A stretch of DNA of 64,000 nucleotides from positions 16,952,577-17,016,576 of the forward strand of contig NC_092582.1 in the NCBI RefSeq assembly GCF_037975245.1, in the 5' to 3' direction. The notes below the pieces were generated by a model. It searched no databases. It saw nothing but the letters and a program-made list of their open reading frames with translations, and was not told the DNA's origin. Source of the DNA: Apostichopus japonicus. Its lineage: Eukaryota; Echinodermata; Holothuroidea; Aspidochirotida; Stichopodidae. A program made the position numbers and the translations under genes. The number at the start of each line of letters is the position of its first letter. Within the stretch, counting starts at the first letter, position 1. This document shows positions 22,859 through 44,185 of this stretch, piece after piece.

Positions 22859-23214
22859 TTACAGATGGAGGATTAAAGATGGCACGTCATCGAATGCGAG
22901 ATTACCAATGTAGGGGAAGCAAGACCTCGTTGCTAGGAACTGTGTCTGTAATTTGAAATCCCACGGCTTTGCGAAGGTTGGATCGGATATTTTTTCTGAT
23001 GTTCCGTCGATACTGATCAGAAATGGAGTATCCAGAATGTACAGACGAGGACAGTAACAGATGTCTTGGTTTCGGTTCAGTGATAGTTCATCCACATTAA
23101 GATTGCCATTCAGTGGTGCCTGATCAAAAGGCTTGGCAATGTGTGTAGTAGTTAAGCGAAACTTTGCGACACCCGTGGCGTAGCTGTGGACACGTATTAC
23201 TATGGACAGTATGA
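22859..23214 (-). CDS. WFIKKN-like gene, exon 18: NTR domain and stop
   Basis: 118 residues to TAA 22861-22859. ILSIVIRVHSYATG matches the first NTR beta-strand, and DICYCPRLYILDTPFLISIDG matches the DWACPCPNVTVSEMPLIIMG region of WFIKKN NTR; a late Cys follows (TRSC). NTR modules occur at the end of WFIKKN, netrins and PCOLCE. Acceptor GCTTCCACAG with matching phase. Confidence 0.82.

Positions 23215-44185: not shown

What the first reader, a model, noticed from the sequence alone, without database searches (positions are those of the whole stretch)
22859..44185. WFIKKN-type protein with nine inserted CCP modules and changed module order
The minus strand reads as an 18-exon gene with WAP, CCP x6, Ig, CCP x3, follistatin/Kazal, Kunitz-like, Kunitz and NTR. 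Vertebrate WFIKKN proteins carry the same non-CCP modules as WAP-FS/Kazal-Ig-KU-KU-NTR. All introns are phase 1 and internal exons are symmetric, the hallmark of exon shuffling. A WFIKKN core merged with complement-type modules is not an architecture I know; it could link GDF/BMP control or protease inhibition with CCP-mediated binding.
Basis: partly seen in the sequence, partly recalled or inferred. Interest (0 to 1): 0.92.

Follow-up and report, generated by a model that had tools for sequence, protein, structure and literature searches.

The report
Duplicated echinoderm mosaic protein gene
This looks like a real gene for a secreted, probably echinoderm, protein built from many small binding and enzyme-inhibitor-like units in an unusual order, present in several recent copies, but it is not shown to be a form of the growth-factor regulator WFIKKN.

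Summary
The minus strand carries 18 exons joined by 17 GT-AG introns, all phase 1: signal peptide, WAP, CCP1-6, two-exon Ig, CCP7-9, follistatin/Kazal, degenerate Kunitz-like, Kunitz, probable C-terminal NTR.

The locus lies in a tandem cluster on one contig. Copies A and C keep all 18 exons open with GT-AG at all 17 junctions. Ka/Ks between copies is 0.19-0.29. A scan of 23 kb found one signal-peptide-like exon, so one gene is likely; no transcript was available.

The WFIKKN reading is not supported. Modules in the standard order (WAP, FS/Kazal, Ig, Kunitz pair, NTR-like) lie separately at C16:12.447-12.464 Mb. The window's FS, Kunitz and WAP are not closest to these; trees are unresolved. 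The NTR label is weak: no Pfam or PDB match.

Best reading: a secreted mosaic of known modules, probably a humoral binding or protease-regulating factor. Its distribution in other echinoderms could not be tested.

The parts
44101..44185 (-). exon 1: start codon and signal peptide (28 aa, hydrophobic core)
   Evidence: only candidate in a scan of 22.86-46 kb for ATG exons with a hydrophobic core and a consensus phase-1 donor; same peptide in copies A and C
41442..41573 (-). exon 2: WAP module, eight cysteines
   Evidence: Pfam WAP 1.3e-6
40106..40294 (-). exon 3: CCP1
   Evidence: Pfam Sushi
37810..37974 (-). exon 4: CCP2
   Evidence: Pfam Sushi; TGA in broken copy B
36009..36182 (-). exon 5: CCP3
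   Evidence: Pfam Sushi
34952..35143 (-). exon 6: CCP4 with in-frame TAG at 34985-34983
   Evidence: copy-A version Sushi 2e-6
34407..34598 (-). exon 7: CCP5 (divergent)
   Evidence: no single-module Pfam hit at 0.01
33985..34167 (-). exon 8: CCP6
   Evidence: Pfam Sushi
33499..33681 (-). exon 9: first half of Ig
   Evidence: joined Ig_3 6.4e-6, below Pfam cut-off
33062..33178 (-). exon 10: second half of Ig
30879..31058 (-). exon 11: CCP7
   Evidence: Pfam Sushi
30149..30352 (-). exon 12: CCP8 (divergent)
   Evidence: no single-module Pfam hit at 0.01
26909..27082 (-). exon 13: CCP9
   Evidence: Pfam Sushi
26172..26411 (-). exon 14: follistatin/Kazal module
   Evidence: Pfam Kazal_2 3e-8
25551..25730 (-). 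exon 15: Kunitz-like, four cysteines, the pair called 14-38 in BPTI missing
   Evidence: sequence; no Pfam hit
24780..24944 (-). exon 16: Kunitz module, aspartate at P1
   Evidence: Pfam Kunitz 2e-20; P1 by recalled BPTI numbering
23507..23569 (-). exon 17: start of probable NTR
22859..23214 (-). exon 18: rest of probable NTR and stop codon TAA
   Evidence: six-cysteine pattern and CxCPxL motif

Best explanation
The locus is one copy of a secreted mosaic-protein gene of a probable echinoderm, made by joining symmetric phase-1 exons and then multiplied by recent tandem segmental duplication (two intact copies found, the window copy with one nonsense codon, one rearranged broken copy and two first exons with no other exon listed nearby). 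Shown: exon order, splice-site dinucleotides, intact copies, and depletion of amino-acid changes in the coding sequence. Inferred: one transcript; the protein is secreted into body fluid or matrix; the nine CCP modules form glycosylated rods that dock on a target such as a complement-type thioester protein, a CCP-bearing protease or a surface; and the WAP, follistatin/Kazal, Kunitz and NTR-like modules bind and restrain proteases or growth factors there. It works like a mosaic humoral regulator rather than as a WFIKKN orthologue.
For: Structure: 18 exons, 17 of 17 introns phase 1; copies A and C open throughout with GT-AG at 17 of 17 junctions; Ka/Ks 0.22, 0.29, 0.19 for the three pairs; exon identity 98.1% and 98.5% against intron 95.6% and 96.9% for window-A and window-C; one signal-peptide exon found. 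Function: best solved-structure matches of the copy-A CCP1-6 stretch are complement receptors 1 and 2 and factor H, and of the C-terminal part Kunitz inhibitors; 17 N-glycosylation motifs in each of copies A and C.
Against: No transcript or protein evidence exists here. CCP modules occur in many non-complement proteins, so the complement link is weak. The Kunitz P1 residue is aspartate and the Kunitz-like module lacks the disulfide that shapes the inhibitory loop (recalled BPTI numbering), which argues against classical trypsin-type inhibition. Apparent new domain architectures can be gene-model errors, as PMC4967905 argues for lancelets (passages and abstract start seen). The copies could partly be unmerged haplotypes, although inversion and different nonsense codons argue for real duplicates.
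Confidence: 0.45

Rival explanations
1. A diverged WFIKKN paralogue: an ancestral WAP-FS-Ig-KU-KU-NTR gene took in nine CCP exons, its FS exon moved behind the Ig, and its first Kunitz decayed. It would bind GDF/BMP ligands through FS and NTR.
For: Same set of non-CCP modules; NTR-like module last; two Kunitz-type exons just before it; phase-1 intron just after the third NTR cysteine in both genes; FS and Kunitz pairs score above all 1000 cysteine-fixed shuffles; C16 KU2 second nearest by path in the unresolved Kunitz tree and both FS in one weak half, support 72; WFIKKN1 Kunitz 7th in the PDB list, 1.9e-12.
Against: Modules in canonical order present separately on C16; FS, Kunitz and WAP of the window gene are each closer to other modules; NTR and Ig show no specific similarity to C16; exon layout of the Kunitz pair differs.
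Confidence: 0.2
2. Two or three neighbouring genes read as one, for example a WAP-CCP-Ig-CCP gene followed by an FS-Kunitz-NTR gene.
For: No transcript was available; introns between Ig and CCP7 (2.0 kb) and between CCP8 and CCP9 (3.1 kb) are long enough to hide a first exon that the scan's donor and hydrophobicity limits would miss.
Against: One signal-peptide-like exon in the scan; all junctions phase 1 with no stop before exon 18 in copies A and C; the CCP9 to FS intron is only 497 bases.
Confidence: 0.1
3. The window copy is a pseudogene or a null allele, with function carried by copies A and C.
For: In-frame TAG in CCP4 of the window copy only; copy B is broken by stops, a frameshift and inversion, so copies do decay here.
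Against: The other 17 exons of the window copy are open and its 17 junctions are GT-AG; the affected exon is symmetric and could be skipped; window-to-A Ka/Ks is 0.22. A single base could also be a sequencing error.
Confidence: 0.4

Closest known systems
WFIKKN1/2 (GASP) proteins
   Same: WAP, follistatin/Kazal, Ig, Kunitz and probable NTR modules; NTR-like module at the C-terminus; [quoted passage not shown]
   Different: Nine CCP modules, FS after Ig, first Kunitz degenerate, 1057 aa against 482-657 aa given for GASP proteins in that paper; modules in canonical order exist elsewhere in this genome
Sea urchin SpCRL/SpCRS mosaic complement-like proteins
   Same: Echinoderm mosaics joining CCP modules with a factor I/membrane-attack-complex module (SpCRL seen in passages of PMC5712786; SpCRS, and the likeness of that module to follistatin, recalled)
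   Different: SpCRL also has F-type lectin and S/T/P domains; no WAP, Kunitz, Ig or NTR in the passages seen
Complement receptors 1/2 and factor H (CCP arrays)
   Same: Tandem CCP modules; best solved-structure matches of the copy-A CCP1-6 stretch
   Different: No protease-inhibitor or NTR modules (recalled); similarity is at module level
Papilin
   Same: Kunitz and Ig and, in some protostomes, WAP modules; called probable sister of GASP in PMC3427181
   Different: No CCP or NTR mentioned in the passages seen; not tested here

Membership tests
WFIKKN/GASP | WAP, FS/Kazal, Ig, two Kunitz and NTR modules all present | tested here: inconclusive
   WAP, Kazal and one Kunitz by Pfam; Ig below cut-off; second Kunitz-type module degenerate and NTR without Pfam hit
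WFIKKN/GASP | Order WAP-FS-Ig-KU-KU-NTR without other modules | tested here: not met
   WAP-CCP6-Ig-CCP3-FS-KUL-KU-NTR
WFIKKN/GASP | Modules closer to WFIKKN modules than to others | tested here: not met
   C16 module tied 4th of 21 (FS), 11th and 15th of 21 (KU2, KU1), tied 8th-10th of 22 (WAP) (20, 20 and 21 fetched loci plus C16); trees unresolved, with C16 KU2 second nearest by path. Only this genome was compared
WFIKKN/GASP | Binding of GDF8/GDF11-type ligands | not testable with these tools
   needs protein
NTR module | Profile or sequence match to NTR | tested here: not met
   no Pfam hit up to E 10; not among 24 NTR matches of the genome scan up to E 10; no PDB hit up to E 10. The C16 NTR part also has no Pfam NTR hit
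NTR module | Six cysteines C-x2-C...C...C-x-C-P...C (pattern recalled) | tested here: met
   read from exons 17-18. Similarity tests are mixed: 4th of 860 scored (itself and scored members of 999 cysteine-fixed shuffles) with a profile of three genome NTRs; pairwise 4, 12 and 99 of 1000 shuffles as high against L024, L023 and the netrin-like L022; hhalign probability 4.8%
CCP/sushi proteins (complement regulators) | Tandem CCP modules | tested here: met
   nine Sushi stretches at a permissive threshold in the copy-A protein
CCP/sushi proteins (complement regulators) | Binding to C3b or factor I cofactor activity | not testable with these tools
   needs protein

The most novel reading that the evidence does not exclude
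A lineage-specific family of echinoderm humoral regulators that joins a complement-regulator-like CCP stack to WFIKKN-type inhibitor and growth-factor-binding modules in one secreted protein, now expanding and decaying copy by copy in a tandem cluster, so that complement-type recognition and protease or TGF-beta control are physically coupled.
Probability: 0.2. Interest if true: 0.65.

Novelty: new variant of a known kind. Interest (0 to 1): 0.4.

Why it matters
It is a clear example of phase-1 exon shuffling giving a long mosaic extracellular protein, caught with recent duplicates in states from intact to broken. If the CCP stack and the inhibitor modules act together, it would be a single-chain link between complement-type recognition and protease or growth-factor control in an animal without antibodies.

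Tried and rejected
A first NTR peptide was mis-spliced and had no Pfam hit; the corrected splice also has none. The fold of the NTR second exon alone is useless (mean pLDDT 33.7) and was not used. Trees of FS (12 rows: 10 of the 20 fetched loci), Kunitz (23 rows) and WAP (16 rows: 14 of 21 loci) modules carried no starred branch and were not used to place anything. Six-frame searches with the window's C-terminal part and with the C16 modules do not list the other gene's FS exon; direct alignment shows the FS pair does score (89), so absence from those lists was not counted as evidence. Literature: nine searches (open-licence PMC only; two returned nothing, 50, 54 and 68 list 15 of 16, 12 of 18 and 10 of 11 papers) showed no title or abstract start that I recognised as describing this module order. 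I saw passages of PMC4967905 and PMC5712786, and the abstract, passages and section 5 of PMC3427181. The species was not identified. A COX1 contig, translated with the echinoderm code only, with ND4L- and COX2-like frames after it read by eye, looks echinoderm; that rests on recalled knowledge.

Full report
Observation. The minus strand of the window from 44185 to 22859 holds 18 exons. All 17 introns are GT-AG and phase 1; all 16 internal exons are multiples of three. The modules in order are signal peptide, WAP, CCP1-6, a two-exon Ig, CCP7-9, follistatin/Kazal, a Kunitz-like exon, Kunitz, and a two-exon C-terminal module that looks like NTR. Pfam supports WAP (1.3e-6), Sushi, Kazal_2 (3e-8) and Kunitz (2e-20), and nine Sushi stretches in the joined copy-A protein at a permissive threshold. 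CCP5 and CCP8 alone have no hit at E 0.01. The Ig is weak (6.4e-6, below Pfam's cut-off).

Copies. Segments with the same exons lie on the same contig at about 16.86 Mb (A), 16.98 Mb (window), 17.13-17.19 Mb (B) and 17.29-17.32 Mb (C); two more first exons, at 17.093 and 17.365 Mb, have no other exon listed nearby. Copies A and C have all 18 exons open, GT-AG at 17 of 17 junctions and the same stop codon position. Copy B is inverted in part; of its exons the 9 in the fetched 17.13-17.17 Mb were read, with stops in CCP2 and CCP5 and a frameshift in CCP5. Ka/Ks over the joined exons is 0.22 (window-A), 0.29 (window-C) and 0.19 (A-C), with p of 4e-8, 1e-4 and 5e-5 against neutral proportions (the pairs are not independent). 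Single module groups vary on few changes, for example 0.66 for CCP1-3 window-C and 0.85 for CCP7-9 A-C. Exons are more alike than introns: 98.14% against 95.61% for window-A, 98.46% against 96.89% for window-C, 97.67% against 96.00% for window-B.

A nonsense codon. The window copy has TAG at 34985-34983 inside CCP4; A, B and C have glutamine there, read as CAG. The exon is symmetric, so a message without it would stay in frame (inference).

One gene or several. A scan of 22.86-46 kb for an ATG exon with a hydrophobic core and a consensus phase-1 donor found one candidate, exon 1, identical in copies A and C. With continuous phase-1 junctions this favours one gene. An unusual first exon could escape the scan, and no transcript was available. 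PMC4967905 (passages seen) argues that many odd architectures in lancelets are gene-prediction errors.

WFIKKN. The same genome has, on C16 in this order, WAP at 12447383, FS/Kazal at 12447879, an Ig first half at 12457041, a Kunitz pair at 12461264 and NTR-like exons at 12462589 and 12463585. That is the order described for deuterostome GASP/WFIKKN (PMC3427181, which did not find the follistatin domain in the sea urchin sequence). I did not build a full model: the second half of the Ig was not found, the NTR is incomplete and has no Pfam NTR hit. I ranked the window's modules against hand-picked fetched modules of this genome: 20 FS/Kazal loci (one search scored 150 Kazal_2 hits; not all 20 come from that list), 20 Kunitz loci (90 hits) and 21 WAP loci (43 hits), plus the C16 module. 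The C16 module is tied 4th of 21 for FS, 11th (KU2) and 15th (KU1) of 21 for Kunitz, and tied 8th-10th of 22 for WAP. The best FS match is a module of the C11 array at 22.90 Mb, the best Kunitz match is at C4:11.52 Mb. Trees had no starred branch; in them C16 KU2 is second nearest to the window Kunitz by path, and both FS modules fall in one weak half (72). Against shuffles with cysteines fixed, FS (0 of 1000), Kunitz against KU2 (0 of 1000) and WAP (9 of 1000) show shared module type; the Kunitz-like exon is marginal against the KU1 piece (28 of 1000) and not against KU2 (111 of 1000); Ig (150 of 1000) and NTR (875 of 1000) show nothing specific. In the PDB list for the C-terminal part, WFIKKN1's Kunitz is 7th at 1.9e-12 behind other Kunitz proteins. 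Both genes have a phase-1 intron just after the third NTR cysteine, which may be old in the module.

NTR and Kunitz-like labels. The C-terminal module has no Pfam or PDB match up to E 10 and is absent from the 24 genome NTR matches. It has the cysteine order C-x2-C, C, C-x-C-P, C. With a profile of three NTRs from this genome it is 4th of 860 scored sequences, itself included; 999 shuffles were made and the rest got no reported score. Pairwise, 4, 12 and 99 of 1000 shuffles score as high against L024, L023 and L022. hhalign gives only 4.8% probability. I call it probable. The Kunitz-like exon keeps four of six cysteines and has no Pfam hit.

Mechanism. Shown: exon order, selection on coding sequence, duplication. 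Inferred: secretion, CCP docking, and restraint of proteases or growth factors by the other modules. CCP1-6 match complement receptors and factor H best among solved structures, which reflects module type. The Kunitz P1 is aspartate and the Kunitz-like module lacks the loop disulfide (numbering from recalled BPTI), so classical trypsin inhibition is unlikely.

Novelty. The module order differs from GASP/WFIKKN and SpCRL as described in what I saw of the papers. Nine searches of the open-licence library showed no paper I recognised as describing it; that is not proof that it is unpublished. I rate it a new variant of a known kind, the secreted mosaic proteins of deuterostomes.

Noticed in passing
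13183-14274 (+): Open frame with an arylesterase match (Pfam 1.2e-14).
   Followed up: no
16576-17172 (+): Open frame with an AMOP domain (Pfam 3.8e-11).
   Followed up: no
20466-21250: 81-base tandem repeat, 9.6 copies, 95% matches; also present beside copies A and C.
   Followed up: no
22860-26860: Non-coding sequence of the 3' 4 kb of the window copy is 99.3-99.5% like copy C but 92.4-92.6% like copy A, while at 30.9-32.9 kb it is about equally far from both (94.8%, 94.9%): a mosaic that suggests gene conversion or stepwise duplication.
   Followed up: partly
G000 C4:23.27-23.35 Mb, C11:24.28-24.33 Mb, C10:6.76-6.93 Mb: Large arrays of Kunitz, WAP and Kazal modules elsewhere in this genome; the Kazal array repeats about every 960 bases.
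   Followed up: no
G000 C22:0.5-1.6 Mb: Many CCP modules and five WAP modules on the same contig as the window; whether they form genes like this one was not settled.
   Followed up: no
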